A DNA stretch of 64,000 nucleotides. Source: Isoetes taiwanensis. Its lineage: Eukaryota > Streptophyta > Lycopodiopsida > Isoetales > Isoetaceae. Under the pieces are notes generated by a model. It was given only the letters and a program-made list of their open reading frames with translations. It did not search any database and was not told where the DNA came from. The number at the start of each line of letters is the position of its first letter. Positions within the stretch are counted from its first letter, which is position 1. A program made the translations under genes and the position numbers. The stretch covers positions 2,219,275-2,283,274 of the forward strand of contig JAJEKV010000020.1 in assembly GCA_021234155.1 (NCBI GenBank), in the 5' to 3' direction. Of this stretch, positions 8,263-51,410 are shown in pieces.

Positions 8263-8269
8263 AGTTTCT

Positions 8270-10640: not shown

Positions 10641-10654
10641 ATAGGTTGCAGGAT

Positions 10655-10678
10655 GGGTCCCTATGTACATAGGGACCC
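10655..10678. repeat. Perfect 24-bp palindrome, unit 1
   Basis: GGGTCCCTATGT followed by its exact reverse complement. It is then followed by CCTCC ... CTTCCCGGAAGGAGG, a second inverted repeat, and a TA tract. It is related to the block at 1018-1043. Confidence 0.9.
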
Positions 10679-10749
10679 CTCCTGATCCCTATGTACTAAA
10701 ACCAGGGGCCCTATCTTGCTTCCCGGAAGGAGGTAGGCTAAAATTATAT

Positions 10750-15298: not shown

Positions 15299-18200
15299 AT
15301 ATATAAATATATACATATATATTCAATGGCTGGCTTAGGCACAATTTGACTTATTTCTCGAACCAATTATCTAGACACTGGCTAAGGTGCTATGGACTCT
15401 TTATGCTCTTGCAACACTCCAGAATTTTCATTTATCGAACTTACTTGCCCATATGGGCATCTTGTGTTAACTGATAGGCTGGCATAGGCTTTACTGATAC
15501 TGCAGATGTAGATGGTTTTGCTAGAGACTTAAGTAACCATGTTATGATGGCATATAATAAAACACATCATTACATTTGTCCTAAGGTCGGCATATAGGCG
15601 CAGCGGTAACACCACCAGATGGAGTTGTGGCCCAAGAGATTGTTCTTGGCCCATTGTTCTGAGCAATGTTGGAGATCGTCGATTATGGCAAGGAATTTTG
15701 CAAAATGTATTCAAGAGGTTGATCCCAACTCACTTAGAAGATTATCAAGTGACACATGCCGCCATGACATGATAACTAGGTATGTGGAAAATCCATATAT
15801 TATATTTTTTATGTCTAGTATCTCCACATTTTTGTTACATATGGCTCTTCAATTTTGTAGAATCTTGATGATGCTTTTATACATTTGCACATTTGGGCAA
15901 AATAATACTTCTTTGGACTATGGCTCCTTCGTAAGAAAAGGGGCACCACATATTTGGATGTGTACTTTATATAAAGGCTTTCCAAAAGGCCTTTGAAAAG
16001 AAAAGGCATGCATGTTTTCCATGCATGCTTTGGGGCCAAGTGTCTTGAAAAACCAAGTCAACTCTTTCATGCATGTGATTGCTTTTAGGACACACTTGGT
16101 GCAGGAATGACACGATCTTTGTAAAGAGCATTTTAATGGTTTTGTTGAGTCTTTACATTTTCATAGAGTATATAGACTGACAGTCGCACCCCACCTCGGA
16201 TATGGTTTGCCTCCATGAACAATGGGCAAAATGTTGGATGCCATGGTCAAGGTTATCTAAAATATATTGGCATCTTTTCACGCACTTTTATCAATTTGTT
16301 TGTGAATACGTCTACATCCACTTCTCGTACACTAGTATATGGTCCGGCAATACTGCATACCCACTTGAGCGTGATACCTCGATACAAAAGTTTTTAGGGT
16401 TCACATGAGCCAAAGAGAAACGACGGTCGGGGTTTATGTGAAAATCTTCCACACGAATTATGGCGAGCAACGACCACTGCAAAGACACTTCATGCCTTGG
16501 TACGAAAAGCATTAATTCTATGAATCTCCAAGAGGTATGACTTTACTTAAACAAAGGATGACAAGTTTGGACCATTTGAAAACAGTTCGAGAAATGGAAT
16601 TTGGCGCTATTTTGAGTTTTTGTTGCAAAGCGCATTTGGGCTATAGCAAGATCATTTAGCAATGAGAAGAGCTTGCTTAAAAGCTTAGCTCGATAGAATC
16701 GCCTACATGGTGATAAAAGGGAGGTTCTTGTAGTATTCTAGTCCGATACAAGGACTAGAACAACGGATTCGAGATAATGTTAGGCAAAGCAAGACAAATG
16801 CAAGCCTTGGCATCTGTTCTGAATGCAAGCTATGTTGGATAAACATACGTTGTTTGGAAAGAGCAATACAAGTAATAATATTGGAGCAAGGAGCAGCATG
16901 ATGGATAAAATAGCAAGCTTGGATAATTTTGATGGAATGACGCATCTCTCAATCAGGTCTTTCCTTGTTTTTATGCAGTTAATGAGGCATTACATGATAT
17001 GCTTTAAGCTAGTGTTGCAGTAAGATGCATGTGGTTTTTTTTCCCACTATTTGCCTTCTATTCTAACTAATGTACAGTGGCACTGCCCATGGGGCATATC
17101 CAGTTAACAATAAGTCACGTCATTTGCAAAAATCGTGATCAAATGAGGAAGTTATACTAGCATAATTTACGTTTATGAAACAGAAGTATTTGCTACTCTT
17201 ATTACTTCATTTAAAATTGTTATCATTGTTGCACATTCAATAATAATCTCTGATTCATTACCTTTTGTTAAGGTTGATGGGCGATAAGCCATGAAATTCC
17301 TTTGCTTACCTGTTGGCCAGCACATTGTTACCCTCATTAGGCTAATATTTGTGTTCTTGGCTGCGGTAACCTGAGTTTCTTCTACCTACTCCATTTTATC
17401 ATTTCTTTGATAAAGAAGGTTAGCCGCGAGCACTTTCGAAGATTGCATCTCCAATACATGAGGTTCTTCAATGATTTTCTCACAATCGAGATGACCTTAG
17501 TCTTCAAGAACGAAAAATTATTTTCAAACTCTTCAGGTTGTATCACTTTCTCAACCTCGTCTGCTTGATAAAAATATAAAGCAGCACCAAAGGTCCGAAT
17601 TATGATTCTAGCTTTATTTGCCTCTAGTAAATGGACAGGTTTGTGTAAAACGCTATGATTTTAGCTTTATTTGCCTCTAGTAAATGAACAGCTGTATGAA
17701 TCTTGCCACATTATCCCAAAATGTTTGAAAAGCTTCTTTGACTATTTTTTTTGGAACTTGAACAAGTCCACCACATGTAATCAGAAGATGGTCTTTCTAG
17801 CAAGCTTTTATATTCTGAAAAGTTGCCTTAAACCTTTTCATTGGCTGCATTTGTGGCTTACATAGATTACCATACCGCAAGAATATCTCAGGTTGCACTC
17901 TAAATTAGCTGTACTACTTTGTTGAAAATAATGGTATATCATTCCATAGATGGGCTTTATTTTCTAGAATGATGGCTTTCCGAATAATACAAAGTGCATG
18001 CCCCCCCATAAGAACACATTGTCTTATGCAAGATGGTGCATATTAGATGTTGTTTTGCGTTATTGTTTGGCTGCGTAAACCTCGTATTGGTTTCCTGATA
18101 AAGTATATGGATCGCTAAAAAGGTATTCATGTTCTATTATACAAGTGTCTTGATTAAACCAAGGCTACTGGTGTATCATGTTGCTGATCATGTTAAACAT

Positions 18201-18793
18201 AGCACTCTTGCATTGTCTTAAATGTATACGGAAAAATGGCTCTTGCAATTGTTGCTTCGTGAACTCTTAAGCATGCTTATCTACACATTTCTATTGGTTA
18301 GTACTCTATTGGCATAGTTGTAGGATCTGTTCAAAATAGTCTTTGTATGAACATTCTTTTATTTTGTGACTTGCATTGAATAGTTCGTAAAACTTATCAA
18401 AGATATGTGTTTGACCTATAAAGTGGCGTCATCATCATCATTCTTTGTAAACAATGATTTATAACTTGAAATGGTCTGTTGTACATGCTTTCTGAAATAC
18501 AAACTCTCAATATATGGAGCCCGGGAGCATACTAGGCATTAAGGTTTTTGATTGAAATCACTGGAAAAAAGCATGTACATGACTTTGTAGCATCTTTAGG
18601 ATGGCACTTCTGTTTGTATGAACAGTCTAAATCTTTGAAACTTGAATGCATGTACTTGATTGGATTATTGTATAAACCAGACTACATGGCACCTCTATAA
18701 GATTGTCCTCAATATAAAAAATGGAACCCATAAGTCCCGGTGAGACCAGCCGAGATATCTCTGATGCGTGTTAGATGTCCGGCAATCTTATAT

Positions 18794-20655: not shown

Positions 20656-21177
20656 ATCTCCATAAACTCATGTTTTTTGGATTGATGTGGATGCGATGCA
20701 AGAAGGAAAGCTACTAGCAGATCTCTATTTTCTGAGCAAAATGATTTCAAGACTTTGCATATTTTGTTTTCATGTTCCTAGTTGCCGAAATAACATTCTG
20801 GTAAGCAAATTTTACATGCTGTCATAAAGACATTTAAAATGGAAAATATGTGCTACATGAAAAGGGAAATACTGGCAGTTAGTAAAACGTGGAAATGTTG
20901 GAGAAAGACTGTAAGTAAACTCTGACACATGAAAGGAAGGTTTATCATTGCATAATTTTCTGATTAAGTTTTGGTATGCTAAAATGGCATAAGTATGGAA
21001 TAGGATGTTTACATTCTGAATTGAATAGGTGAAACATATCGGAATCTGGTTATCTGGTTACTAATAATAAAATATGGAACCAAGGTTGTTCATTAATCTA
21101 GGACTGGAAAATTGTAAAAAATAAATTATGCATGTTAAAGTATGTATAAGAACAGAATCATAATGGATTATAAGCAT
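20656..21177. other. No gene seen; AT-rich flank of the large element
   Basis: A-rich intron-like DNA that ends at the TA target of the element beginning at 21180. Sequence of similar character resumes at 34062. Confidence 0.6.
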
Positions 21178-21179
21178 TA

Positions 21180-21206
21180 GAGTTTTTTTGAGATCAAATA
21201 AGGGCC
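21180..21206 (+). repeat. Left terminal inverted repeat
   Basis: Begins GAGTTTTTTTGAGATCAAAT, directly after TA. It pairs with 34033-34059 at 26 of 27 positions. Confidence 0.9.
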
Positions 21207-21589
21207 CTTACTCGATGCCACGTCAAAAAGCTCGCGGCCAATGGGGAGCCGAGCTTGTACAGAACTTTTTCACCGAGCCTTGGTTTCGCGTTTCCAGGTG
21301 TCAACTGCACGTAGCTTCGGTAATGTCCGTGCCTCTAGCTTCGGGTGTCAGATTACACACGTGGCAATTATAACCGTTAGCTCCCGCCCTCAATTCCCGC
21401 CGTGTTTTTTCCACAACGAGTTTGCGCCGAAGATCGATTGCCCGCGCCAAAGGGAGCTTGGGTTCACTTTCGAACCGCCGACCTGCGCTAAAAGGGAGTT
21501 TCACCACGTAAAAACTTCGATCAAGGTAAAATCGCGTAGCCTTTCCTAGTATTTCGATTCCGCTCCACATTCGATTTGAATTCCGTGGA

Positions 21590-22790
21590 CTAGATGGCTA
21601 TAAGCTCTATCACAAATGGAAATGAGTTTGAAAGCTTCGTGGTGTCGACCGAGCTTTGTTACACTCCAACCTGCAATGCGAGGTGAATGGCGAGTCAAAA
21701 GATGCGGGAGAAATGATGTTTCACGCACATTGGAAGGCTTTGGTGGTCGGATTTCGATCGGGCAAAGAGATATTTGTACAAGTAAGGCATGTATACACTC
21801 CAACAGATATGGCAAAAGAAAAAATAAGCAAGTTTACGAACTTTCCCACGGTTAGAAGCAAATTGTGAGTATGTAATTCTATGCAATCCATATTCAAATT
21901 AGTTCAGCACTTATCCGGTTCCTTCCCATTCTCTCGTGTTTGTGTATATCCGATGTGGAGAACACCGCCTCTCTTCACACTCGATAAGCGATGTTTTCCA
22001 TTGCTTTCACCAAGATATGGGCTGCTTGTTGTTCAAGGTAGCACACCAAGCATGTTCGAGAAAGGGGTATATGGTTCGAGGTATGAATACTCTCCACGAA
22101 GATCCAAGCTAACCGAGCTTCCATTGCCCACTGTCCCGATTTATAACCGCAGCCTCGGATGCCACTTCTATCTTATTAGCACGGAGTAAGTTGTCGCAGA
22201 AATGTTCACGGCATTGAAGGAGAAGGGAGGAGTCTCATGGGCATGTGAAGATAAATTTAGGAATTGATCTGTTCATTGCCATATTCAAGAGCCGACAATG
22301 TAAAGAAGACCTTGAAGATGTTTACAGTTCAACAAATCGGCGGATTGTTTTTAGATAGTGTATTTCTTGAAGGTTGGAGTGCTCGACTTCACGATGGAGC
22401 TGAATGTACCGAATGCGTGATAAGTCGAGACACGGTTCGGTTCAGATATTGCATTCTAAGCAAACTCAGATGTCACTTTTAAGTATAGGAGATGGCGAAA
22501 TGTCCGTGAAGGAAGAAAGTACGCCCGATTCCTGTCGAACAAGATGACAATGATGGCACTCATTCCGTTGTCATAGACTTGAACATTCATAAGGATAATC
22601 ACCGTTCAAAAGTCCGAGAGCCGAGAGCGAGTGGTCTCTATTCGATGTTCGGCGCCAATTGGAGTTTGAGACAGACTTAAACTTCTTCCATTTCATGATA
22701 GATGGCCGTAAGGTGGGAAAGCGCAGAAAGAATGCTATAAATTGGGGTCATGCATGCCCCCCAAAGTCATATCTGTATATGAATCTATCT
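21590..22790 (+). pseudogene. Gene A of the large element: unknown, reading frame broken
   Basis: Coding character continues through several frames. Frame 2 covers 21.6-22.19 kb (GESKDAGEMMFHAHWKALVV, FPTVRSKL, then PMWRTPPLFTLDKRCFPLLS). Frame 1 covers 22.26-22.48 kb (FTVQQIGGLFLDSVFLEGW), and frame 3 covers 22.66-22.79 kb (FETDLNFFHFMIDGRKVGKR), which ends in a stop. Together they suggest one protein of about 350-400 residues interrupted by small indels. I do not recognise a family. Since indels at CAG/CTG sites are common in nearby repeats, the breaks may be sequencing errors. It lies just inside the left TIR and reads towards palindrome array 1. Confidence 0.4.
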
Positions 22791-22909
22791 AATATAAATA
22801 TAAGTGATTGTTAACTGTAGATCTATTGTATATTAATTGCAAACATTTGCTTTCATTGGGATATAAGACTTAAAGTAGCCATGTTATGTACAACTCTGAT
22901 TGTGGATGT

Positions 22910-23280
22910 GTTTTCACACCGTACTTACGGTCTTGAAATTGTGGCTCTCATAAAATATGGAAGGGCCATTTTTTCGCACCGTAGCCACTCGGCTTAAAAT
23001 GTGCATAGCATAAAAAAAGAAAGGGGTATATTCGCACCGTAGCCACGGTGCGAAGTTATACATACAATAAGATATTGAAGTGTTGTTTTCGCACCGTAGC
23101 CACGATGCGAAAATGTGCACAGAATAAAAAATGGAATGGGTATTTTCGCACCGTAGCCACGGTGCGAAATTGTGAATAGAATAACTTATCGAAGTCTTGT
23201 TTTCGCACCGTAGCCACGGTGCGAATTTGTGCATAGCATAAATTAAGGAAGTGTTATTTTCGCATCGTTGCCACGTTCTT
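22910..23280. repeat. Palindrome array 1 (about 7 copies, 57-bp period)
   Basis: Copies start near 22910, 22971, 23031, 23087, 23143, 23200 and 23258. The core is TTTCGCACCGTAGCC running into ACGGTGCGAAA, a near-perfect 26-bp palindrome. Spacers of about 31 bp are similar to each other (for example TGTGCATAGCATAAA). The outer copies are degenerate. Confidence 0.95.
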
Positions 23281-23299
23281 AGTCTCTATTGCAAATCAA

Positions 23300-24870
23300 G
23301 CCGCTACAAAGGCGCACATTCTAAGTGTCATAAATCGAGGCCGCCTCCACGAGAATGGCAAATAGCGGGTCGATAAGGCATGGGAGCTGTTTAGCACATG
23401 GTATGACAAAATAGTGGAGAAAGAACGGGATTTTCGTCGAAAACATCCCGGCGAGTTCGAGGAGGAGCTAGAGGAGCCATGGATGCAACCACATCGTATA
23501 TAATAAGTTTTGCCCGAAAGGTAGACATTATGGCGAGTGTAACAGTTTATCGATGCATACGGGCGGCATCCTTCATAGCTTCATGGTCGAGCTGGTCCTG
23601 ACGCGGAAACCATGTCCCGCGGATCGGTTTGCCTTCACTAAGCATCCAAGCTTTTCTTAAGATGTTTCCAAACCCCGATCATGACCGAATAAGAAGGTTC
23701 TTGAAGAAACTACCCGCAGAATCGCGGTGCAAGAGGGGAAGGAAAGTTTTTCGCCTAGATATCATGTTCAAAGACATACATGATTTACACTAAGCCAAGC
23801 AAAGATGCCAGTTCTTCTTCAAGTGCACAGTGTCGCCGAAAACAAACGCCCGCCACCAAAGAGAGGAGCCGATAGATCCCGAGGAAGAGAAGCTCAGATT
23901 GAAAATGAGGAGATCGAGGTTGTGGAACAGAGGTCTCCGAGAAAAAGTTATCTACTTGGGGGCTATCGAAGCATATCCCATCCATGTAGGTGGGAAACCA
24001 TACTTGTTGTTGCCGGACATATCCGGGTGACAGGGTTGAGAGAAGACGAGATATTGGGCCATATATGCCCATGTTGTAGGCCCGGAGGACTTATAGACTT
24101 TGAGACCCGATGTCCCCGCACAAATGATGGAGGTCGTGACTTATGATGGATCCTCAATACCTCCGTGAGGATGCATTTGAAATTGTCATGCAGCAAGTCG
24201 GGCGGTATGAAGCAAAGAAAAGATGTCAAATTTGAAGTCGCTAGCTCTTCAAACACCGCTCAATTCATAGAACGTGAGTCGTCAAGTCCGCTTTCAAAAT
24301 AACAAACCCACCAAGGTCGAATCGGGACAAAAGAGAGGTATTTATCCGGTTTCATTTTCTATTTCTTCTTGAATCGATGTTTCTTTTATGCAGAGTTATT
24401 TATTGATGACTTCGCAAGGCATCGAGAGTCACCCTAGGTAGGGACGCCAAGATTGCACATTATATGGGCTACCTTCACAAGGGGAAATTATTGTGTTTCA
24501 CAATAAATATAGTCCATCCGAGTACAGAGGGTCCTCAAGCTTAAGGCTCATTATTAGTCGGCAACCACGTGCCCCTAGCCTCAAACTATGATCGAAAGTG
24601 GTAGCAAAGAGATAGGGCTATCGCAATGTATGTCTTCTGGGGCTTCAAAATGTACTCGTCCCTGCAAATAAAGCAGCTCTAGGTTTTGGGTGGAGCGGAC
24701 AAGGAAACATCAAGGCTTTTGTCCCAGGTAATGTAAGGACCCCGACATATTGTATCCGTTAGATGCAATTGGGGCTGGAGTAAAAGAAGAGGACTTAGAA
24801 GATTTTGATTCGGTACTACAGTGCCCGATGCCAAGAAAAGGAAATGTACTTAAAAAACTTATGTATGAAT
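23300..24870 (+). pseudogene. Gene B of the large element: unknown, reading frame broken
   Basis: Coding-like frames run on the plus strand between arrays 1 and 2. There is a charged N-terminal part (IVEKERDFRRKHPGEFEEEL near 23.4 kb) and a basic central part (EEEKLRLKMRRSRLWNRGLR, then YLGAIEAYPIHVGGKPYLLL at 23.9-24.0 kb). Near 24.7-24.83 kb is LYPLDAIGAGVKEEDLEDFD, followed by a basic end. At least four frame changes separate them. No domain is recognised. If the breaks are artefacts the product would be about 450-500 residues. Array 2 follows directly. Confidence 0.35.
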
Positions 24871-25028
24871 ATAATGTCTTTTCTATAAATTGTCTTTTTC
24901 TATAATGTATCAATTGTTTTCATATGACTAAATTGTTTTTGTATGAATGTTCATTTATGATATTCATTAATTGTTAGACTTCAATGTGAGCAATAAATCC
25001 TTGTTAGATGTATATGTTAGGTATTCTT

Positions 25029-25405
25029 TAATGGTGGCTACAAAGGCGAAAACAGATGTCGCCAGCTTTTGTTCCGGGCGATTTCGCATCCGCGGGCTAC
25101 AAAGGCGAAAACAAAGGGTTGGCAATTTTGACTACCCTATTTCGCGACCGCGGGCTACGGTGCGAAAAAAACAGTCATGCTCTGCAGCTTTTGATCGCCC
25201 TATTTCGCGACCGCGGGCTACGGTGCGAAAAGAGGATGTCGGCAGCTTTTGACCGACGATTTCGCGACCGCGGGCTACGGCATGTCGAAAACAGGCGCCC
25301 ATAGCTTTTGACTGCCCTATTTCGCGACCGCGGCTACGGTGCGAAAAACAAAGATGTCGGCAGCTTTTGACCGCCTGATTTCAAGACCGCGGCTACCGTA
25401 ACATT
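25029..25405. repeat. Palindrome array 2 (about 7 copies, variant form)
   Basis: Copies lie near 25029, 25082, 25139, 25203, 25259, 25319 and 25378, with periods of 53-64 bp. The left arm reads TTTCGCGACCGCGGGCTACGG instead of the TTTCGCACCGTGGCTACGG seen elsewhere. The same CAC to CGAC and GTGG to GCGGG changes occur in every copy, which could be a systematic base-calling error. Spacers share a GATGTCGGCAGCTTTTGACCG motif. Confidence 0.9.
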
Positions 25406-25557
25406 TTTCGCTGTAGGGGTTTATGGATCGGACGCATAATATTGCTTAATTGAATTTCTTCTCCTTGCTAAAATCCGCCATGTCCATGGAAGGCGCTTAG
25501 CTCAAATCCCACAAAATGAGGCGCTTGACCGGGGCCGTAATGTTGATGAGGTCATTA

Positions 25558-26020
25558 CTAGCAGCCGTAGACTTCTATTCCAATCACGAGGGCGAGGGCG
25601 CTTATTCCCATCACAAGCCGCCAGATGGACGAGAGGAGGTTGTCCTTACGTAAGACTTCGCAAACCCTTGGGTCGTCGCCCACACTATTAGTAATAGTGT
25701 GGACGAATATTTCAAAACCCGACCGCTTTCCTAGTCGGGTCACCTTGCCGAAATACCGGTAAGGTTGTTGGGGAAGGAGTTTTCCGCGGACGCAACCGCC
25801 CCGCCACAATATTCCAGCCTGTGATGATCAGATTGTGGTAGCAAAGGGACACAACTCGATCCAACAGCCCCCCTGCCGTTCCCCACCCCGAGCGGAGACA
25901 TTGAGGAAGCCGCCGGGTCATACGTCGTGTGGCCCAAAGTTGATGTCATCCATGTCCCAAGACGGAGTCACGGCCATTCCAGCTTCTTGTGTAATGAGCT
26001 GGATTACGTGTTGAAACCAC
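25558..26020 (-). pseudogene. Gene G of the large element: unknown small protein
   Basis: Minus-strand frames from about 26.0 kb down to a stop at 25558 give a C-terminal part that is open for 83 residues (CVRGKLLPQQPYRYFGKVTR, then GFEIFVHTITNSVGDDPRVC, ending LVIGIEVYGC). The upstream part shifts frame (LDRVVSLCYHNLIITGWNIV). It lies head to head with the H3-like gene, about 20-100 bp apart, so the two could share a promoter. Its 3' end faces palindrome array 2. The function is unknown. Confidence 0.35.
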
Positions 26021-26042
26021 GGGGGGGTCTACACACCCGGCC

Positions 26043-26892
26043 GTGCTTTGGCCGGCTGACTGTGGCCATGGTGCCCAAAGGCTCATGAATCGCTATCTCC
26101 TCGCCTCGACGTTGGGACCACTATTGCATTCCCAAACGCTTGGCGCTGGTGGGGGAGGAAGAACCGCAGACTATGGAAGTGCAAAGATGACCCGCATCAC
26201 CGGGTCCAAAGATGATCGCCAGGATCGACGGGCCGCAAGATCAAGATCACCGGTCCAAAGAAAATCAGCCGGATCAGCCCAAAGAAGATCATCGTGGACC
26301 AAAGATGTTGATCCCGGGAACCCTAGTTCGAGTGGAAAAGGTTCTAGGAAGCCCCGGCGAAAGCTGAAATCCAGGCCGAAGAAATCCGAGCCGGCAAAGC
26401 CTCCTAGGCTTGTTCCTACTGCGAGACAAGCTGAGAGAGATGCAGGCAAGGAGACCGATAAGCTTGGTAATAAGCGGAAGCCTAAGGAAGGGGAGCCTAG
26501 TGTTAGATATGGTGGCCCCGAAGATGAAGGGTGCTCCTCCCGCACTCGTGCTTTGAGGGAGATCGTGCATCGGCAGCACGCACTCCCGTACCTCCTCGAT
26601 TCCCAAGCTTGCCTTCGCTAGAATGGTCAGTTTGAGATGCAGGAAATTATTGAGAGGAGGAAGGAAGCAAGAAGCAAGAGGAGGGACAGAGCACCGTGAC
26701 TTCATCCCGATGGTGGAGGAGGAGGTGAATAGAATCCGTGCAGAGGCCTTGGACATATCAAGAAGAGGCGCAGAGGCTCATCTAATTAGCCTCTTTGAGG
26801 ACAGTGTCCGCTGTTGTGTGCACAGAGGACGTGTTACTGTGCAGGCCAACGATTATGCTTTAGCTAGATACTTCCGTGGATGCCTCCCTTAG
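26043..26892 (+). CDS. Divergent histone H3-like protein with a long basic tail
   Basis: The tail is in frame 3 (26043-26621) and strongly basic: RRAARSRSPVQRKSAGSAQR, then GKGSRKPRRKLKSRPKKSEP. It leads into TRALREIVHRQHALPYLL, matching the H3 alpha-N helix ([11 protein letters not shown]). Frame 1 (26623-26892) gives RDFIPMVEEEVNRIRAEALD, AEAHLISLFEDS, VHRGRVTVQANDYALARYFRG. This matches the H3 alpha-2 and alpha-3 order: [29 protein letters not shown]. One frameshift separates the halves near 26.6 kb; it may be an error. Canonical H3 tail sites (ARTKQTARKS) are absent and loop 1 looks short. Core identity is low, so this is a histone-fold variant, not a normal H3. In plants histones package nuclear DNA; here the role, perhaps packaging or marking the element, is inference. 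Confidence 0.65.
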
Positions 26893-27022
26893 CATCCTTT
26901 TGTAACACTTTTTTGTTTCTTAATATATGAGTGTTTTAGTATTTATCGTCATGAGTGTTTTATATTTATCTGTAATTATTTGCAATTCTATTTATTGCGG
27001 CTGTGCATTTATCTACTAGTGT

Positions 27023-27216
27023 TGACCGTGGCCACGGTGCGAAAATGACTATTCCATATTCTGTGGGAAGGTCTATTTCGCACCGTGGCCACGGTGCGAA
27101 AATGACTATTCCACATTCTTTGGGAAAGTCTATTTCGCACCGTGGCCACGGTGCGAAAATAGTGGTTCCAAAGTTTTTGGAGGGCGCAATTTCGCACCGT
27201 GACTACGGTGCGAAAC
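27023..27216. repeat. Palindrome array 3 (4 copies, 57-58-bp period)
   Basis: Copies begin near 27023 (right-hand part only), 27075, 27133 and 27190. The second and third are exact 26-bp palindromes: TTTCGCACCGTGG followed by its reverse complement. Spacers share TGACTATTCCA and GGGAAGGTCTA. The array sits between the 3' end of the H3-like gene and the 3' end of the minus-strand genes. Confidence 0.97.
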
Positions 27217-27429
27217 AGACTATTCCACACATTGTGAAGAGAATGCTGAACTGAATTTAGAATCTACACGTAAGGAAAATGGCCAAGAGCTTTCCAAATT
27301 GAAAATGTGCGGTAAATAGACGGATCACATGTATCACTTATGGTTACATACTTATAACTCATATAAGAGGCATAGCATGTACATAGAACTCATATAAGAG
27401 GCATAGCATACATGAATGAAGAAGCTTAT

Positions 27430-28090
27430 TCAAGATCGGATCATCATGAAAAGGTAGTTGAGTGATGCGATTAATCTCATAGACGCCACGCCTCGAACCC
27501 TCCAAAGGTGGATAATAACACGATAAAACCCTCCTAAGAACGATTTCGCCCTCTCGCTACTCCTTCCAAATTGTGGATCAAGGGGATACCCTCCGAGAAC
27601 ATCTATGAATATCATTATATGTCATAGTGCAAGTAATGGAGTCCATATCTTCGGGACGAGGAGGCCGAGACATAGCAAATGGACGCCTTCTGCATTGAGT
27701 GGAACCCTACTTATATCGAACAAAATTATTGACATGCAATCAGAAAGCAAAGATTATTGGTTATACATAATGAGCATAATGTACAAAATACACATGTATA
27801 TAATGTACGATATAGCGATATACATTCTCGAGTATTGAGTTAGGGGACTCTTCCGAGTCATTGTCACCAGGCACCCCAGTGATCTTTTCTATCATGTACA
27901 TTTGATGCTCTCTATTCCATATTAGATGGATGATAACATCGAAGGGATCAGGATAATAGCGAGGATTGAGAACGGCAGTGGTCATCCAGTCTTCCATGGG
28001 TATTTCTCGCCATGCGACAATCGCTTGAAATTTTCGTGATTCATCTTGCGTGTAATGGAATCACGCTCAGACCGTAATGAGACCACATGG
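27430..28090 (-). pseudogene. Gene H of the large element: unknown, broken
   Basis: Minus-strand frames: about 28.06-27.76 kb gives DESRKFQAIVAWREIPMEDW, then NPRYYPDPFDVIIHLIWNRE and an acidic GDNDSEESPNS. A second piece at 27.6-27.43 kb gives GGYPLDPQFGRSSERAKSFL and ends at a stop. The stretch between (27.62-27.75 kb) is AT-rich. The pieces may be two exons or two small genes. No family is recognised. Confidence 0.3.
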
Positions 28091-28201
28091 CTAGATCGGA
28101 GGCCAATATTGTCGCGACTCGGCAATTTGATGTATATTTATACCCACCAAAATTATTGATGGTATATACCCGTAAAATTATTGACTATATATACATAGAA
28201 A

Positions 28202-28767
28202 TTATTGATGGTATATACATACCAAAATTATTATCATATACATACTTGTATGGTACTCAGATACTACGTGAGCTACAATATGTAAATATAATGTACGATA
28301 TAGCATATATACCTGATTTCTTTTAAATAGGCATCTATGCCTTGTCTTTGTCTCCGCTTCTTGTTTGCATGCTCCTTGCCTCCCCGTCCGCTTCTTGTTG
28401 CTCTTTGCACCGCCTGTCGCTCCACTAGTTTCTTGCAAATGGTAACTTTGCAAGAACATCCTCGGCTGGGCTGATCCGAATACCGCAAGCGCAAGCGGTA
28501 GAGTTAATACGCACTTTTGATGATTTTTTAACAACTTTTGGGAGCATCGATGGCGCCACGGTCCAACCACGAGCTTGCAAGGCACCGATCAACTTCGCTA
28601 TCGATCGCTATACTCGCCATCTCCTCCACCGAGGAGATCAATTCGAGTGAAGCAAGGTTCACTCTAAGTGCTTTGGGACTTCTTGAACCCCCTCGATTTA
28701 GAAGATAGGCTAGAACAGCTTGAAGGACATGCTTTTCCATGGTTTCATGGCCTACTCTCTCGATCAA
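28202..28767 (-). pseudogene. Gene D of the large element: small protein with a basic end
   Basis: ATG at 28767 opens IERVGHETMEKHVLQAVLAY, NLASLELISSVEEM and DSEVDRCLASSWLD before a stop at 28528. After a frame change the coding character continues as TLPLALAVFGSAQPRMFLQS and a lysine/arginine-rich end (RATRSGRGGKEHANKKRRQR in one frame). The size, helix-rich first half and basic end recall small chromatin proteins. No histone fold can be shown, so this remains a suspicion prompted by the H3-like neighbour. It reads away from array 4 towards array 3. Confidence 0.35.
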
Positions 28768-29193
28768 GATGTGCCTCCGGTCATTCCTACTAATGAGAAG
28801 AATAGGATTTATATCCTCATTGAACTTTTACGACTTCCATTACAAATCTTTTGTGGATATTGGTAAGCTCCTATTCCGCTCCCTTGACTTCAACATCCCG
28901 TGGTTACTTGCCTAGATTCCCCACCGGGATACAATTCCTTGGGATACACGTGACCTATGGCTACATAGCACACAAAGACATAATACGCATATATCACAGA
29001 AGATACTCCACTGGACTGGTATAAAGATTTTCATAGAAATTAAGATATAAGCAAGTGATTTCCGTGTAATTAAGTAACAGCCTCATATTATCATGTATTA
29101 TGTTGGCAATCTTACACTTTTAGTGTAATTGAATGGTTTCTTCTACCATTTTCCTTGTATATTTTCGTGTGAATGTTTTATTTGTAGTCATAT

Positions 29194-29272
29194 TCGACCG
29201 TGGGCCACTTGCATGAAAAATCGCCTCACTTAAAAATTATTGAAGGTCCTATTTCGCACCGTGGCTACAGTA
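29194..29272. repeat. Palindrome array 4 (2 degenerate copies)
   Basis: One copy near 29194 (GACCGTGGGCCACTTGCATG) and one at 29251 (TTTCGCACCGTGGCTACAGTA) are 57 bp apart, the period of the other arrays. The spacer, AAAAATTATTGAAGG(T/G)CCTA, is shared with array 5. Confidence 0.85.
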
Positions 29273-29369
29273 TTAGTACTTCAACAGTATTCCTGGCTAC
29301 TGTGGTATTATACTTCAACAGTATTAGTATTATACTTCAACATTATTGGAGTCGTAGCTATAAATTCTT

Positions 29370-29815
29370 TCACCTTGCTTTCACTTCTCACCTTTGTTCC
29401 ATGTTTTCACATTGCTTTCACTTCTCGTGTTCTCACCTTGCTTTCACTTCTCACCTTGTGTTCCGTGTTCTTTGCTAATTGATCTTGATCCTTGCTTCTT
29501 GCTCCTTCATCTTCGTGCTACTTCATGCTACTTGGTCTTGTTCCTTGCTCCTGATCTTGCTACTTGATCTTGTTCCTTGCTTCCTTGTTCCATGATCTTC
29601 CTTGTTCCTTGCTACTTCATCTACCTGGTTCTTGCTATTTGGTCTTCCTTGTTCCTTGATCTTCTTGCTCCTTGATCTTCCTTGTTCCTTGCTTCTTCCT
29701 ACTTGATCTTGATCCTTGTTCCTTGCTACTTGGTCCTCTTCCTTGCTTCTTGCTCCTTGCCTTGTTCCTTGCTCGCTTCCTTGTTCCTTGCTTGCTTGTG
29801 CAAATGATTGGACCC
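29370..29815. repeat. CT-rich degenerate minisatellite
   Basis: Irregular repeats of CCTTGCTTC, CTTGATCTTGTTCCTTGCT and similar units cover about 440 bp and read as one strongly strand-biased CT tract. It leads directly into gene E and may be its 5' region. The Lys/Arg-rich minus-strand frame across it is a by-product of the repeat. Confidence 0.85.
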
Positions 29816-29846
29816 AATCCTCCCCGGGCTACTCCGTAAGGACTGC

Positions 29847-30395
29847 AAGCATGCCCCCGTGCATTCTCAGGCGGCCCCGAATGGATGAGCTATGGGACCA
29901 TTTCTTGGAGTGGAGGTTGCGCCACAGCCCTACCAAGGAGCTTACAATGGAGTTGATCAACTTCATTCGAGCGATTTGATTGTGGTCATGAGCCACCGAT
30001 GGAAATTAATCCATCCTAATGTTATAGGAGACTTGCAATGAGGGGACTTCTTGAACCCCTCCTTATCCGGGACGAGATGCTACAAAGAATTGAGGCCTCT
30101 TCTTCGTGCTGGCTATTTAGCACACTCTCTGGATGCATACATAACAGAATTCATTCATGAAATTAGCCGGGGACAGATGTATGGCCTTATTAGAGTGTAC
30201 TACCACGAGTACAATGGTTTTGTGGAGTTAGGTCCGCTCTTCTTCCGTGAGTATCATCCTGTGGAATTACTTTTTCTAATGACTAGGTACCCCATATGGT
30301 GGGAAGAATCAGGCTGGGATGAGCGTGAGCTCTTGATTCCTAACCCAGATGCATGGGTTACACCTCGCAGGGGAAGGGGAAGGGGAAGGGGTTAG
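29847..30395 (+). pseudogene. Gene E of the large element: unknown small protein
   Basis: Two frames make up the gene. The first has an ATG near 29850 (MPPCILRRPRMDELWDHFLE, then PTKELTMELINFIRAI). The second is 30051-30395 (LRPLLRAGYLAHSLDAYITE, FIHEISRGQMYGLIRVYYHE, FVELGPLFFREYHPVELLFL), ending in DAWVTPRRGRGRGRG and a stop. A frame change lies near 29.98-30.05 kb. The product would be about 175 residues, helix-rich, with a short RG-rich basic end. It faces array 5. A faint likeness to the N-terminal part of the ORF at 61181 (LRP-L-L..., EI..., LF) is noted as a finding. Confidence 0.4.
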
Positions 30396-30560
30396 GAACC
30401 TAGGGGAACGTTACTAGGGACATACTGCCGTGGTCTCTAGTAACCTTTGCTATCTATCATAAATATTTCATATGATACCGTGATAATATGTTCTATAAAT
30501 ATTCTCTAATATGTTAATATGTTCTCTAATATGTTAATATTCTCTAGTTACTGGCCCATA

Positions 30561-30880
30561 TTTCGCACCGTAGCCACGGTGCGAAATTGACTCAGGTACA
30601 AATTATTGAAGGGCCTATTTCGCACCGTAGCCACGGTGCGAAATCGACTGAGTTACAAATTATTGAAGGGCCTATTTCGCACCGTGGCTACGGTGCGAAA
30701 TCGACTCAGTTATAAATTATTCAAGGGCCTATTTCGCACCGTAGCCACGGTGCGAAATCGACCCAGCATAAAATTATTGAAGGGCCTATTTCAAGATCAG
30801 GGGCTACGCGGTGCGAAATACGTGGATCCAGCTTTTAGTTACAGTTCCATATTTCGCGACCGCGGGCCAATGGCGCGCAA
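30561..30880. repeat. Palindrome array 5 (6 copies, 57-bp period)
   Basis: Copies begin at 30561, 30618, 30675, 30733, 30790 and 30852. The first four are near-perfect palindromes (TTTCGCACCGTAGCC into ACGGTGCGAAA). Spacers are almost identical (CGACTCAGTTA, AAATTATTGAAGGGCCTA). The last two have the CGCGACCGCGGG form. It lies between the convergent ends of genes E and F. Confidence 0.97.
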
Positions 30881-30949
30881 TACATGCATCCAATTTACTT
30901 ACAACACAAAGATTTCGCATTAATCGAAAGCACTATCGAACCGATAAAT

Positions 30950-33660
30950 AAACCAACTCTTTTACAAAGAGAGACGTTATCGAGCTCTCAATACGGACAT
31001 AACCTTTGCCTTGCCTACATCTCATTGATCTCCACTCCCTTGATCGCCAACAAATGCGGACTTATACCAAGTTGCCCTCTTTTTTCCCTTCCGGGTTTTT
31101 GTCTAAACAACTTAGCAAGTGTTGATTCACTCGTTCCGCGATTTCTTCACCCACTTGCACACGATCCTTCAGAAAACCATTGACACATCTCGCTGCAAGG
31201 AATTCCCAACCGAACCTCTCGTGGTTGAGTGAAACGGAAGAATGCATTCTTTGCTTGCTTATGGGACTTCTCCATTCCCCGTGTATTCCAAATTCCCGTG
31301 CTTCCATACTCCCCGACAAAACCACACGCCATGTGCGAACAGAATATGGACATAGTGAGTCAAATTGGCCTCACCCCATGCCGCCGAAAGACTTAGTGAA
31401 GTTTGTGATCGCCTCCCCGAATTTGGCAACATCATTTTCCCCGCACTACCTTTTTTGCATTTCCTTTACCAAGACAGAGAAATCCCGCCATGCCTTGATT
31501 TTCTTCAGCGTGATCCGCCACGATCATTTCGATCATCCTCACCGCAATAAGATCCTTGTAAGCTTCCCAAACACACCGATAAGTTCTCTTTCAAGGAGGC
31601 AAAACCTCTTAGCCTTTGGACCACCCATACTGGGTTTCAGGGAACCTTGCCTGATACCTTTGGATCTTGAAGTATTTTGTAGTGCCCACCATGAAGTCCC
31701 ACATTAGATAGCACCTTTTCAACTTCATGCATGGCAGCTTCCCTAGAGCTTTGGGGTGATTTATTCCAAGCAAACAGATACTCATGTAAACCATCTTGTC
31801 TATGATTCTCAAGAAAGCATGAAGGGTGCATATGTGTACTCTTCTTAACGGAATTGGCGAGAATTGGCATCAAGGTTGTGTCCTTCTCCTCTCTATTTGG
31901 TGGCTCATCCCGACACACTTCCTAATGTACTCTTGTCCAATCCAAATTGAATCTCTTCTTGCATAGAGACAGTAGGGACAAGCATGAGTAGTCTTACCAA
32001 AGACCATGCTTCATTCTCAGACATGCATTTTATTGTCTTCAAATCTGCAAAGAAGATGCCATTCAACCTCGTACTCACCATATCCGTGAACTGCAAGTTT
32101 TTCTCCGATTCCGTGGAGAGGCAATCATTGTGGGAATGGGTGTTTGATCAAAACCCATTTCAAGATAATCGCGTGATTTTCCTCCTGTACCTGAAATAAA
32201 CCAACCCACCAAATGTGATCTTCGACCGGACGGAAAACTTATCATCTAGATTTGACTCTTCATTCCCCGTATTCAAAGCTCGCTCATTAGACTCAACGAA
32301 ACCCTCTCGTGATTTCTCGCCTTTCACCAATTCCATTTCATCCAAATTTTCAAAACAATTCTTAGTTTGCCAACAAGACTCTTCTACCTTCATATCATAA
32401 AATCGAACCAAAAGTCAAGCATTCTAGTTAAGTCTATCCAAAGAATTGTTATTTTCATTAAGGCGTAAAGTATCACCAAACTTCGACTTCTTCTTACCTT
32501 TGGTATAGGATGCCAATGTATCCAAGTTGACACTGCACTGGTCACCGATACATATCACCAAGAAGCTCTTGCACTTGTCTGTTTTCGATGACCTACAAGT
32601 CATCACGCTTAGTCATCCTTGGTAGTAGAATAGTTTTGGTAATGCCTTGTTGTTTAAAGCCATCCCCGCAAGCATCCGAACAAAGCAATATAAGCTTGCC
32701 TACTTATTCCGACATTGTCACACGCTCTTGCAATCGATTCTCGAGGTTTGACTGCTCCCCAACTCCCTGCAATGCTTGATGTACTACAGCCTTTCCTAAG
32801 TTGAATGCTACCGAAGCTTTAACATTCTCAATACATCATCTTTAGTAACTAATTTCTTTAATAAACCGCAATATTAGCGGTTTTCTTATTTTCTTCTCGC
32901 AAGATTTGGATCAACAAGCTTTTTAATAGCCATGACCCTTTTTTTGAGCCTCCACCCCCGGGGCTAATATATTTATGGGCTTCGTGTTTTTGCCCTCTCC
33001 CCGATCCCCAGAGTTCTTTTTAAGCCGCTTGACCCGCTTGTGAAGGGAATCATTTTCTTGCGCAACCCTCTTCATTCCTTGCCGCAGCGGTGCATTCATC
33101 TCACCACTAATTTCTGATTTTCTACCTCCAATTCATTGAGCTTATGCATTGTTGAGACAGAAAAGTAGTTCGCCTGTTGGAGCCGATTAACATCCGATAA
33201 AACTTTGCAATTGAATCCATACAAGTGGTTATACATGGCACGCAAATGTGGATCAAGATACCATTAACCAAATTATTACAAGAACCTAGTAACCCTTTGT
33301 GTCCCTTACAAGCAAATTCAATAAGACCGGATGCGAGTGGAAGTTTGATGGGCTCGAGTGAAAGGATCACATGGATACAGCTTGGCCTTTAGCCCGTAGG
33401 TCTATATTCATGGCTCCGTAAGCTCGCAATGCATCTTCATCTATTGGTTGCTTCCAAGTGAACTTATTCCCCGTAAAGGCGTGCATTCTTTTGGCACTTG
33501 CACTCTAAATTGACCCTCGGAATTAGTTTGATCCCCAAAACGTAAGTATTAGAAGGAAGAACACTCAAAGGAATGCAATGACGACTTCGGAAACCAAATA
33601 CCTTTGCCATTGACGCTGCAAAAGACCGAGAACCGAGGAGATTAGATTAGGAAGATTCTT
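30950..33660 (-). pseudogene. Gene F of the large element: large unknown protein, frame broken
   Basis: Minus-strand coding character runs for about 2.7 kb across many frames, starting near 33620 (MAKVFGFRSRHCIPLSVLPS). Next comes a coiled-coil-like stretch at about 33.2-33.0 kb (NELEVENQKLVV, then KRVAQENDSLHKRVKRLKKN). The middle has KMRMSENEAWSLVRLLML-type helices near 32.0 kb, and the C-terminal part at 31.35-31.15 kb reads GSTGIWNTRGMEKSHKQAKN, AFFRFTQPREVRLG. It is the largest gene of the element and the best candidate for its transposition enzyme, but no DDE, tyrosine recombinase or other catalytic motif is recognisable. Roughly 700-850 residues would result if the indels are errors. 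Confidence 0.4.
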
Positions 33661-33894
33661 GTTAACAAAACGAGCGAAATTGAAAAATTTCGCTATTTGC
33701 CGGCAAGAATCCGCCATAATTCAATTCAAAACTCGCCCGGGCGCCGATGGCAAGATCGTTGGCCGATGGCGCCGATGGCAAGGTCGATGGCGCGAGGGCA
33801 AGCTCAATCGATGGTGTCAAGCTCGATGGCATAAGCTCAAGGTGGGAAAACGAAAATCCTAGATATAATCATCAAATATTCAGGTCGTTAGGAA

Positions 33895-33960
33895 ATAATG
33901 ATTGCGGGGTTAGGTTCGGGGGTTAGGTTCGGAGGTTAGGTAGTTAGGTTAGGGGAGAGT
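33895..33960. repeat. Degenerate telomere-like TTAGG repeats inside the right end
   Basis: GGGGTTAGGTTCGGGGGTTAGG-type units (TTAGG with a TTCGG/TTAGG alternation) repeat about six times just inside the right end of the element. They could be subterminal binding sites or simple G-rich sequence. Confidence 0.7.
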
Positions 33961-34032
33961 GAAATTTAGGTATGGAGGGGGGAAGCTAGGTTCGGCATCC
34001 TACGTGGCGGCCCCCCTAATATATTCTTAGGA

Positions 34033-34059
34033 GGCCCTTATTTGACCTCAAAAAAACTC
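34033..34059 (-). repeat. Right terminal inverted repeat
   Basis: Ends TGACCTCAAAAAAACTC, followed by TA. It is the reverse complement of 21180-21206 except for one base. Confidence 0.9.
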
Positions 34060-34061
34060 TA

Positions 34062-34848
<787 letters not shown>

Positions 34849-35523
34849 AATATATAATTGTAATATGGAAGGTAAGGGGCTAGCTTAACATACGCAAGCA
34901 TTTTTAGAATTTTTAAGATTAGGATTGGACACGTGTAAGATGATAAAATTAAGCCTCTTATAAATTGATACGTGTAGGGAAAGAGTAGCTTGAGAGATGT
35001 TCTAGATGGTCATACTACGTTCTAGAATTTTGCAGAAGGTTAAACGCTGTAGCCAGGAATGTTCTAGATGGGTCTGTGCTTTTGTATAAAAGGAGCCGGC
35101 AGCGACAGTCCAAGACATGGCTAAGCGTTGAAGACAGTTGAAGGCAGCGATGATTAGTAGTAGCCTACGATTAGTGGGCGGCATCATAACCACCAGAACC
35201 ACCAGTTTAGAAGATTAGGTCTGATATTACGGCAGTTCTAGGCTGCCTTTGGGGTGTTCAAAATTTTTGTAGGATTCAAGTATCATAGCACATAGTTGGG
35301 GTTGTGAAAAGCACAGAATGATGTGAAATCACTCGGCCTGTGGCTTGCTTCTTCTGCAGATACTTTGGTTCTGGCATCCTGTGGCTGTGGGTTTTCAATT
35401 TCGCCTGGATTCAGGTGCCATAAAACAGAGTTGGGGTTGCGAAAAGCACAAAATAACTCTGAAATCAGTCGGTTTCATCTTTTCGTTGATACAAAAGGGA
35501 GGAGTAGACGTGCATCGGCTTGA

Positions 35524-38762: not shown

Positions 38763-40952
38763 TCAAAGTGCACCATAATCGTCGCCGTGTGAAGCTGGAA
38801 TAGAAGAAGGTACAAATTCTTCGTAGGATGGGATTAAGTATGCATCGCTACCATCCAGAAGTGGCTCACCTTCAATGTCATAATCCGCCAATTGAACAAA
38901 TTCTTCATCATCTTCCATGTCTTCCTCATCGTTCACATTCTCCACTAATTCATGAAGTGGAATGCTCTCTTTCTTGGCAAAACCAATGTAAACTTCTTTC
39001 TGAATAGTCCTGTGGCTTTGCAAGAGTTTCAGATTAGCACTTACAAATACAAGATTGGATGTTCTTGAAGGTAACAATCTAACTCTTCTCTTACTTGCCA
39101 CATGCCCAAACACACTAAAAAGGCGCTCAACCGGAGATGAACTAGCCCCTTGGCTAAGTACTCTTATAGCAAGCCTTTGTAATTCTTTTGTGTCGGACCC
39201 ATAATCCTCCCACCAAAGAGCAGAACCGATAAGATACTTGTCAACTTGAGAATCATGTGTACCAAATCGACCCCGCTTATTGCGAAAGTGATGGAGTTGA
39301 TCCCTAATTGCTCTTCTCTCTTCATGTGTAGAAACCATTTTCTCAAGAACCATGTCCCAATCACGCCCTACATCTCTATCAGTTTCTTGAGACCCCACCT
39401 GAAATTCTGGATCTAATACATAAGCTATTGATTGAAGGCGCGAATGATATTTATTCCACCTTCGTGTGCAAAGCTCTTTGATTCCTTTGAATTTTATGTC
39501 ATCCTTTTCAATCGTGCCAATATGCTCCACCATCCTAACCATACCCTCGTACACTTTCCCTATGCATGGAGTCATGCCATCAACAAGCCTCATCATCAAT
39601 ACAATTGGCTCAACAACTTTCAAAAGGTGTTCCACTTGTTTCCAAAAACCATCATCCATAACAATATTGTAAGAACATATACCTGCTTGAGTACTCGCAA
39701 ATTTGGAGCTTTGATAGTCACCACAAACGAACAAGGCCTTCAGTGGCCATCTTAATTCTTGCATTCTTTCAAGCATAATGAAGTTGTAGCCAAACCTTGT
39801 CTCAGAGTATTTCAGTAGCACCTTGCCATTGTGATTCTCACTAGTTAGCTTTTGAAAAACATTGCGCAATAGAGCGTGCCCATTAACAAAGGTGACAATA
39901 GATTTCCCTTGACTAATCACATTTGCATTCTCAGCAATACTACCAATATCCTTCAACAAATTATTCAAGCAATGAGCCATGCAAGGTGTGAAGAAAATAT
40001 GTGGATACTCCTTCTCTACGTTGGCTCCCGCATTTCTATTTGCATTCTCCCCATCAGACACAATTTGAACCACATTTTCAGGACCAACAAAGTCAATGCT
40101 CTCTTTCCACACTCTTAGAAGATTTGCTCCACTCTTTCCTTCTTTTCCAAGATCATGAGACATTAGAAAGTATGCCTTACCTCTACAATAGGCACCATGA
40201 ATATGCCGCCCTCTCCTATCCGTCCAACCGTCAAAAATCAAGGATACTCCCCATTTCTTCCATTCCAAGCGAATGTCCCCAAGAAGGCCTTCCAAACCTT
40301 CCTTCTCTCGAATTAAATTCTTTGTGCGGAGCTCATCATAGGTTGGAGGCTCGTAGTTGGGTCCATAGCTTGCAATTTTGTTTATCATGACCTTGAAGAA
40401 AGGTGAACGCGCTACATTAAATGCAATATGATCATGGTAAAACCACCTGGAAATAGCTCGATCCACCTCTTCTTTCTTCTTGGGATCTAAGATTCTCTTG
40501 ATGTCCTGTTGTTTCTTTGGCTTTGATGGAAAAAAAGAACGAACGGCACTAGTACGGGCACCACTACAATCATCCATGGGCGGGGGGCTACCATAATCTC
40601 CATGTTCTTCAGGACCAATGCCAACGCCAGCTGCTGCTATGGCTGATTCCTTTCTATACTGCCTTGCACTAGAGATTGCATCTAATTGCTTTGCAAGATT
40701 TATAAGTTGTTGCCTCTTCTCATCCGGAATCCCCATGCAAACAATAATCTCATGCCCGGGCTCCCCAGTCAAATGGCCACGAGGTCTATCAACGGCAGAA
40801 GTTCTACTAGTGGAGCAATACTTACATGCCCATTGCTTAGAAGACCCCGATTTCCCCTTCCCCAATACATTCACTTCATCCCACCAATCCGAAGGAGAAG
40901 GCCCTGACCGTTTTTTCCTCCTTAGATGCAACTCTCCTCCACCTTCTTCCAT
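38763..40952 (-). CDS. hAT-family transposase, intact, 729 aa
   Basis: This is a single open frame of plant hAT type. A BED-like zinc finger is near residues 42-72 (WACKYC ... GHLTGEPGHEIIVC). The DUF659 region spans about residues 200-350, with LIFDGWTD (D241) and VQIVSDGENANRNAG (D300), then HIFFTPCMAHCLNNLL. The hAT C-terminal dimerisation region is at about 570-645, with LSQGASSSPVERLFSVFGHV (E609) and SNLVFVSANLKLL. The three acidic residues fit the catalytic DDE positions. An acidic tail (NDEEDMEDDEEF) follows. The protein would bind element ends in the nucleus and catalyse cut-and-paste transposition. The frame has no breaks, unlike other mobile genes in this window, so the element may still be active. 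Its 3' end is only 300 bp from the element's left end. Confidence 0.96.
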   Translation of the reverse strand: MEEGGGELHLRRKKRSGPSPSDWWDEVNVLGKGKSGSSKQWACKYCSTSRTSAVDRPRGHLTGEPGHEIIVCMGIPDEKRQQLINLAKQLDAISSARQYRKESAIAAAGVGIGPEEHGDYGSPPPMDDCSGARTSAVRSFFPSKPKKQQDIKRILDPKKKEEVDRAISRWFYHDHIAFNVARSPFFKVMINKIASYGPNYEPPTYDELRTKNLIREKEGLEGLLGDIRLEWKKWGVSLIFDGWTDRRGRHIHGAYCRGKAYFLMSHDLGKEGKSGANLLRVWKESIDFVGPENVVQIVSDGENANRNAGANVEKEYPHIFFTPCMAHCLNNLLKDIGSIAENANVISQGKSIVTFVNGHALLRNVFQKLTSENHNGKVLLKYSETRFGYNFIMLERMQELRWPLKALFVCGDYQSSKFASTQAGICSYNIVMDDGFWKQVEHLLKVVEPIVLMMRLVDGMTPCIGKVYEGMVRMVEHIGTIEKDDIKFKGIKELCTRRWNKYHSRLQSIAYVLDPEFQVGSQETDRDVGRDWDMVLEKMVSTHEERRAIRDQLHHFRNKRGRFGTHDSQVDKYLIGSALWWEDYGSDTKELQRLAIRVLSQGASSSPVERLFSVFGHVASKRRVRLLPSRTSNLVFVSANLKLLQSHRTIQKEVYIGFAKKESIPLHELVENVNDEEDMEDDEEFVQLADYDIEGEPLLDGSDAYLIPSYEEFVPSSIPASHGDDYGAL

Positions 40953-41006
40953 AATAATTGAGCTCCTAAGGGCAACCTTGTATCATAAACGCAATATTAA
41001 TCATTA

Positions 41007-51402: not shown

Positions 51403-51410
51403 CCGTGCAG
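51403..51410. repeat. 8-bp target site duplication of the hAT, right
   Basis: CCGTGCAG, identical to 38454-38461. Confidence 0.9.

What the first reader, a model, noticed from the sequence alone, without database searches (positions are those of the whole stretch)
21180..34059. A 12.9-kb TIR element that matches no transposon family I can name
Its 27-bp inverted ends match at 26 positions and abut TA. Inside are about seven gene-sized segments in both orientations, five palindrome arrays and a histone H3-like gene. Large multigene DNA transposons or integrated viral genomes carrying a chromatin protein are not a standard plant category. The sequence shows the ends, the arrays and the H3-like core; that it is one mobile unit is inferred from the TIRs.
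Basis: partly seen in the sequence, partly recalled or inferred. Interest (0 to 1): 0.9.

Follow-up and report, generated by a model that had tools for sequence, protein, structure and literature searches.

The report
Plant transposon carrying its own histone
This is one of many copies of a large jumping gene in what is probably the quillwort genome; its cutting enzyme looks like a distant relative of the enzyme that rearranges our antibody genes, and it carries its own altered histone H3 gene and arrays of palindromes.

Summary
In the host genome (1.658 Gb, probably Isoetes taiwanensis) the left end matched all 40 places scored, of 385 candidates. Ten other copies read nearly whole are collinear; 8 of 10 have both TIRs. 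Gene F is a transposase: D-D-E, C(2)C and H(4)H motifs, a homolog model whose best solved match is RAG1 (then Transib), relatives in a fern and in metagenomes. It resembles the CACTA/Chapaev/Transib/RAG1 clade but matches no Pfam family. One copy nested in another, compared with 12 uninserted sequences, shows no target-site duplication, unlike that clade (2-5 bp). Gene C ends in a histone H3 fold. A relative in the same genome shares TIR, F and gene A, but shows no H3 in the part read. A 26-bp palindrome recurs every 57 bp between genes. No viral relative was found. H3-carrying hAT transposons are known in fungi, so this is a new variant with, it seems, an independent histone cargo. That H3 and the arrays counter silencing is inferred.

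The parts
21175..21206 (+). left terminal inverted repeat, CATTAGAGTTTTTTTGAGATCAAATAAGGGCC
   Evidence: sequence; same start in 20 of 20 other left ends read
34033..34064 (-). right terminal inverted repeat (31 of 32 identical to the left)
   Evidence: sequence; found in 8 of 10 copies and 3 of 10 more, of which only 2 kb was read at that side
21988..22789 (+). gene A, unknown protein (273-aa open frame in copy L013); a relative, 51% identical over 244 aa, lies in a second TIR family
23415..24850 (+). gene B, unknown protein (400-aa open frame in copy L013)
25472..26892 (+). gene C: about 350 aa (joined to the rest by inference, frames are broken) followed by a histone H3 fold
26540..26892 (+). 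H3 fold of gene C (aN/a1, basic insert, a2-a3); the 5' part is frame-broken in the window copy
27764..28663 (-). gene D, weak candidate (160-aa open frame in copy L019)
   Evidence: matched in 10 of 11 copies, window included
29676..30399 (+). gene E, unknown protein with an RG-rich end
31130..33564 (-). gene F: DDE transposase of RAG1/Transib/CACTA type with an N-terminal coiled coil; frame-broken in the window copy
22950..23275 (.). palindrome array 1 (57-bp period)
25046..25396 (.). palindrome array 2 (degenerate in this copy)
27025..27227 (.). palindrome array 3
29218..29271 (.). palindrome array 4, half-site remnant here (three units in copy L025)
30559..30880 (.). palindrome array 5

Best explanation
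A 12.9-kb DNA transposon family with a RAG1/Transib-like DDE transposase (gene F), a probable accessory protein (A) and cargo (B, C, D, E). Shown: many copies with fixed 32-bp CATTAG...CTAATG ends; an F gene whose family has D-D-E, C(2)C and H(4)H motifs and, in a homolog, a RAG1-like predicted fold, and which is open over 797 aa in one copy; an H3 fold in gene C; palindrome arrays between genes; and, in one nested copy, insertion without a target-site duplication. Inferred: F binds the TIRs, excises or copies the element and joins it to a target cut with no or almost no stagger. Inferred and less sure: an element protein (possibly A or B) binds the palindromes as a dimer, and the H3-like protein builds altered nucleosomes on the element that resist the host's H3-based silencing. 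TET/JBP genes in fungal transposons and the anti-silencing proteins of Arabidopsis transposons would be functional parallels.
Against: C, B and E show weaker selection (C 0.99 and 0.68, B 0.60, E 0.74-0.76); for C, frame breaks inflate this, and in segments that I chose after seeing the breaks pN and pS are 0.031 and 0.056, on only 10 and 5 differences. A relative with 55% identical F shows no H3 in the part read, so H3 seems not needed for mobility. Lack of duplication is unusual for this clade; per-base identity at 3 bp exceeds shuffles (0.50 against 0.32, p 0.003, one of 12 lengths tried). The spacing agreement with RAG1 uses RAG1 numbering recalled by me. The fold model is of a homolog 35% identical to the element's own F. 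No expression, protein or DNA-binding data. How many frame breaks are real is unknown.
Confidence: 0.85

Rival explanations
1. An endogenous DNA virus (giant virus, polinton or virophage relative) that multiplied in a plant genome.
For: Several genes, TIRs, and a histone gene, which some giant viruses also have (recalled).
Against: No capsid, packaging, polymerase or other viral family in six-frame Pfam scans of the (frame-broken) window copy; no IMG/VR relative of H3 or F nor phage relative of an F homolog; a full-length transposase of RAG1/Transib type lies in a copy.
Confidence: 0.03
2. H3 is only a passenger: host H3 coding sequence captured by chance, as in fungal hAT transposons, with no role for the element.
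For: A relative with the same kind of TIR, F and A shows no H3 where sampled. Fungal hATs captured H3 and in one fungus the copies all decayed (PMC6710886). Selection on C is not clear-cut.
Against: The H3 fold is much diverged from ordinary H3 yet keeps aN, a2 and a3 and adds a basic insert, seems fused to a long upstream part, and its region is in all 11 copies examined. A recent passenger should be near-identical to host H3.
Confidence: 0.35
3. The H3-like protein helps transposition itself (packing of the long donor, or steering insertion to chosen chromatin) rather than countering silencing.
For: A 12.9-kb donor is long; RAG complexes read H3 tails through RAG2 (recalled), so a link between a RAG1-type enzyme and H3 is conceivable.
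Against: A relative appears to move without H3; no RAG2-like family was seen in the frame-broken window copy.
Confidence: 0.15
4. The missing target-site duplication is an artefact of decay or recombination, and the element makes a 2-3 bp duplication like its clade.
For: Slight excess of 3-bp identity at the junctions; a copy in what looks like a gypsy pol gene leaves room for 0 or 1 bp.
Against: In the nested copy, 12 of 12 uninserted sequences run straight through the junction with nothing doubled or lost.
Confidence: 0.2

Closest known systems
[quoted passage not shown]
   Same: CA..TG termini (here CATTAG..CTAATG); DDE with C(2)C and H(3-4)H between the second D and E; RAG1 and Transib as best solved folds
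   Different: no target-site duplication in the nested case (clade 2-5 bp); no Pfam match to a transposase family; H3, palindrome arrays and unknown cargo
RAG1 / ProtoRAG (BbRAGL) / Transib
   Same: predicted fold of an F homolog over 386-499 aligned residues; spacing of C(2)C and H(4)H to the catalytic residues (RAG1 numbers recalled)
   Different: 11-16% identity in those alignments; no RAG2-like gene seen; ends are not of the RSS/Transib CACAGTG type (recalled)
Histone H3-carrying hAT transposons of fungi (PMC3538342, PMC6710886; passages read)
   Same: a DNA transposon that amplified an H3-like gene
   Different: different transposase clade, plant host, diverged H3 with upstream part and basic insert, more genes, palindrome arrays, no 8-bp duplication
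TET/JBP-carrying fungal transposons (PMC12730594; passages read)
   Same: transposon carrying an epigenetic protein, proposed to escape silencing
   Different: demethylase rather than histone
Sequence-specific anti-silencing proteins of Arabidopsis transposons (PMC5735166, start of abstract in search listing; the names VANC/VANDAL are recalled)
   Same: idea of short repeated motifs read by an element protein (motif detail recalled)
   Different: MULE transposons (recalled); no histone; here binding of the palindromes is not shown
Spy transposons (PMC4482050, start of abstract in search listing)
   Same: TIR elements without duplications (recalled)
   Different: PHIS group of transposases; small (recalled)

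Membership tests
CMCT clade | DDE transposase with C(2)C and H(3-4)H between second D and E | tested here: met
   D404, D501, C521-C524, H755-H760, E779 in homolog P0028; the element's own frame L056 has all in the same order
CMCT clade | 5'-CA..TG-3' termini | tested here: met
   CATTAG..CTAATG
CMCT clade | 2-5 bp target-site duplication | tested here: not met
   0 bp in the nested copy against 12 of 12; 0 of 12 copies with a perfect 2- or 3-bp repeat. So it works like the clade; strict membership is left open
CACTA/EnSpm | Transposase_21/TNP2-type sequence family (name recalled) | tested here: not met
   no such Pfam match at E<=0.1 in six homologs of 549-900 aa, nor at E<=1 in ten; a remote tie is not excluded
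CACTA/EnSpm | CACT(A/G) ends and 3-bp duplication (recalled) | tested here: not met
   ends CATTA; no perfect 3-bp repeat in 12 copies
Transib / RAG1 | RAG1-type catalytic core fold | tested here: met
Transib / RAG1 | 5-bp duplication (recalled) | tested here: not met
Fungal H3-carrying hAT | hAT transposase and 8-bp duplication | tested here: not met
   no hAT family in six-frame scans of the window copy; no perfect 8-bp repeat in 12 copies
Endogenous DNA virus or polinton | capsid, packaging ATPase, polymerase or integrase genes | tested here: inconclusive
   six-frame Pfam scans found only the histone, but the window copy is frame-broken; genes A, B, D, E have no confident family
Histone H3 | H3 aN helix and histone fold | tested here: met
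   PF00125 E 2e-15; PDB H3 E 1e-16 with aN and a2-a3 aligned. The single-sequence model is poor (pLDDT 58)
Histone H3 | assembles into nucleosomes | not testable with these tools
   needs protein

The most novel reading that the evidence does not exclude
A plant transposon lineage, from the same stock as RAG1, that arms itself with its own H3 variant: the variant is placed on the element through palindrome arrays between its genes, giving it nucleosomes the host cannot mark for silencing. H3 would then have been recruited independently in plants and fungi by unrelated transposons.
Probability: 0.3. Interest if true: 0.92.

Novelty: new variant of a known kind. Interest (0 to 1): 0.74.

Why it matters
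It adds a transposase lineage of RAG1/Transib type in a lycophyte (inferred host) and a fern that Pfam does not know, with an insertion that leaves no duplication, which bears on how such enzymes choose the stagger of their cuts. A diverged H3 fixed in a mobile element, together with the fungal hAT cases, suggests that transposons recruit histones more than once, and makes the idea of histone-based anti-silencing testable.

Tried and rejected
Six-frame Pfam scans of the window copy with X at stops, E<=1: only the histone. Natural frames from copies: weak matches only outside C, all below the curated cut-offs (for example NAPRTase_C E 1.4e-4 on the F coiled coil, NRD1_2 E 0.005-0.009 on B), taken as chance. 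NCBIfam, PHROGs, PADLOC and Rfam were not searched. IMG/VR for H3, F and the F profile: none. Phages with P0028: none. PDB by sequence for F: none at E<=10 for one frame; for the profile two rows at E 0.055 and 0.85, taken as chance. A search for long proteins with the H3 fold found one, P0067 (E 8e-5, 37% over 79%), whose upstream part looks unrelated. Single-sequence model of the H3 part: too poor to use. TA or CATTA as target: rejected, since every end read carries CATTA. A 4-bp AAGC repeat at copy C1084: rejected, the uninserted sequences explain it. Papers: phrases for transposon-encoded histones gave 0 papers; other searches. I saw no report of this element in those listings; most subscription papers and bioRxiv are not held. 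A genome-wide count of H3-like loci could not be run (tool busy), nor the right-end count.

Dropped before counts: 2 of 10 whole copies without a found right TIR (L019/L020, L025/L026) and 7 of 10 end-only copies whose right TIR was not in the 2 kb read are not among the 12 two-ended copies. One search printed matches over 150 columns; one search used alignments of 2000 or more, pairs of 2500 or more; one search listed frames of 110 aa or more. Of the 40 left ends scored, 20 besides the window were looked at.

Full report
What was checked. The window is G000:C1019:2219275-2283274 of a 1,658,258,908-base genome in 1110 contigs. Size and contig number fit Isoetes taiwanensis (1658.30 Mb, 204 scaffolds plus 909 contigs; PMC8566536, passages read); this is inference, no name was given. 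The ends read CATTAGAGTTTTTTTGAGATCAAATAAGGGCC on the left and the same in reverse, with one difference, on the right. Because 20 of 20 other left ends start CATTAG while flanks differ, CATTA belongs to the element: 21175-34064.

One mobile unit. With the left 421 bases, 40 places matched, all that were scored of 385 candidates; apart from the window itself they are 91-95% identical. Ten other copies were fetched in two halves each. All ten were collinear with the window; 10 of 10 had the left TIR and 8 of 10 the right TIR; L011/L012 carries an insert of about 4.5 kb, and L025/L026 lacks part of the D region and has an insert near the right end. Nine open-frame pieces of genes A-F, taken from single copies, each match all 11 copies (window included, and the copy of origin counted), except D in 10 of 11; in many copies a piece is split over frames.

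State of the copies. Pairs of copies differ at 6.2% of sites, with transitions equal to transversions (ratio 1.03) and 0.51 gaps per substitution over 110 aligned pairs. Two tandem-repeat pairs elsewhere in the window (97.9 and 96.8% identical) show 0.79 and 0.87 gaps per substitution; a third, old pair (69%) shows 0.17. The published assembly is from nanopore R9 reads polished with racon and pilon. I therefore think that part of the broken frames is assembly error; how much is unknown.

Insertion. Of 12 copies with both ends (9, window included; 3 of 10 more), none has a perfect 2- or 3-bp repeat, five share one base and one has 4 bp; at 3 bp the per-base identity is 0.50 against 0.32 in shuffles, p 0.003 before correction for 12 lengths. 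C1084 sits inside another copy of the same element: near the junction its joined flanks align without a gap with 12 of 12 uninserted sequences, one base four positions away differing from all 12. So nothing was doubled or lost there, and the 4-bp match is chance. A second copy (L017) lies in what reads as a gypsy pol gene (by eye), where 0 or 1 bp is possible. Insertion without duplication is thus shown at one site and consistent elsewhere.

The histone. In copy L025 a 196-aa frame matches PF00125 at E 2e-15 and PDB H3 chains at E 1e-16, with aN (PGT-ALREIR) and a2-a3 aligned separately. Between them is a basic insert (RRKESRRKRRNRAPDFVP). Upstream of that frame lie about 280 more codons that I take for the same gene; the frames are broken, so the join is inferred. 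The stretch from AEAHL to the C-terminal CLP is read in one frame in 3 of 11 copies (window, L025, L027); in 4 of 11 the AEAHL start was not found. Selection: whole alignments give dN/dS 0.99 and 0.68 for C; frame-consistent segments, chosen after seeing the breaks, give pN and pS of 0.031 and 0.056, 0.035 and 0.068, 0.011 and 0.036, on few differences. A gives 0.25-0.31, F 0.36-0.46, B 0.60, E 0.74-0.76. A search for long proteins with this H3 fold found only P0067, otherwise unlike.

A relative without H3 where read. At C1084:1051485 a 55% identical F with an 811-aa open frame is followed by a gene A relative (51% over 244 aa) and a related TIR, CATTAGGGATTTTTTGAGATCATAAAAGGGCC. The 2.5 kb from the estimated end of F towards A, and the rest up to that TIR, hold no significant match to C, B or E and no palindrome; the other side, from F to its own TIR, was not read. 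In two further relatives I read 3.0 kb each at guessed places: at C984 gene A again (47% over 182 aa), at C1044 only a low-complexity stretch like that upstream of E; these two do not test H3 well. So F and A look like the core, and H3 like cargo of this family. One copy is thin evidence.

Arrays. TTTCGCACCGTRGCYACGGTGCGAAA recurs at 57-bp steps: 14 hits in the window, all in the element, none on average in 20 shuffles. Copy L025 has 20 hits in its left half, in groups between A/B, B/C, C/D, D/E and after E; numbers vary widely between copies (L023/L024: none and one). Their place, one per gap, and dyad symmetry suggest sites for a dimeric binder; no binder is known.

Novelty. H3 inside a DNA transposon is known from fungal hATs (PMC3538342, PMC6710886; passages). 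What I did not find in the searches named in Tried and rejected is a plant case, a RAG1/Transib-type transposase with it, a diverged H3 with its own upstream part, or a member of this clade inserting without duplication. I file it as a new variant of a known kind, most likely a new branch near CMCT.

Noticed in passing
window 38763-40982 (-): Long open frame of 739 aa that looks like an hAT transposase (by eye; no family search run).
   Followed up: no
window 6187-18787: A unit of about 4.56 kb repeated in tandem, 97-98% identical, nearly three copies; used as noise control.
   Followed up: partly
window 34657-34856: A run of about 100 AT dinucleotides shortly outside the right end.
   Followed up: no
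window 51398-53103 and 57520-58482: Frames that look like LINE reverse transcriptase and gypsy pol (by eye).
   Followed up: no
L062 (C1084:1053000-1055520): In the relative without H3, frames resembling an ABC1/ADCK-type kinase and a reverse-transcriptase zinc-binding region (by eye), perhaps captured host or retroelement pieces.
   Followed up: no
P0052, P0055: Adiantum nelumboides predicted proteins join a piece of the F transposase to DUF7794 or a methyltransferase: mis-annotation or real fusion.
   Followed up: no
L012 about 5480-10000 (locus coordinates; the first 4.5 kb of the oriented half): An insert of about 4.5 kb splits one copy near array 5; its nature was not examined.
   Followed up: no
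12 two-ended copies, junctions: Unexplained excess of matches of left-flank positions -3 and -2 with the first two bases of the right flank.
   Followed up: partly
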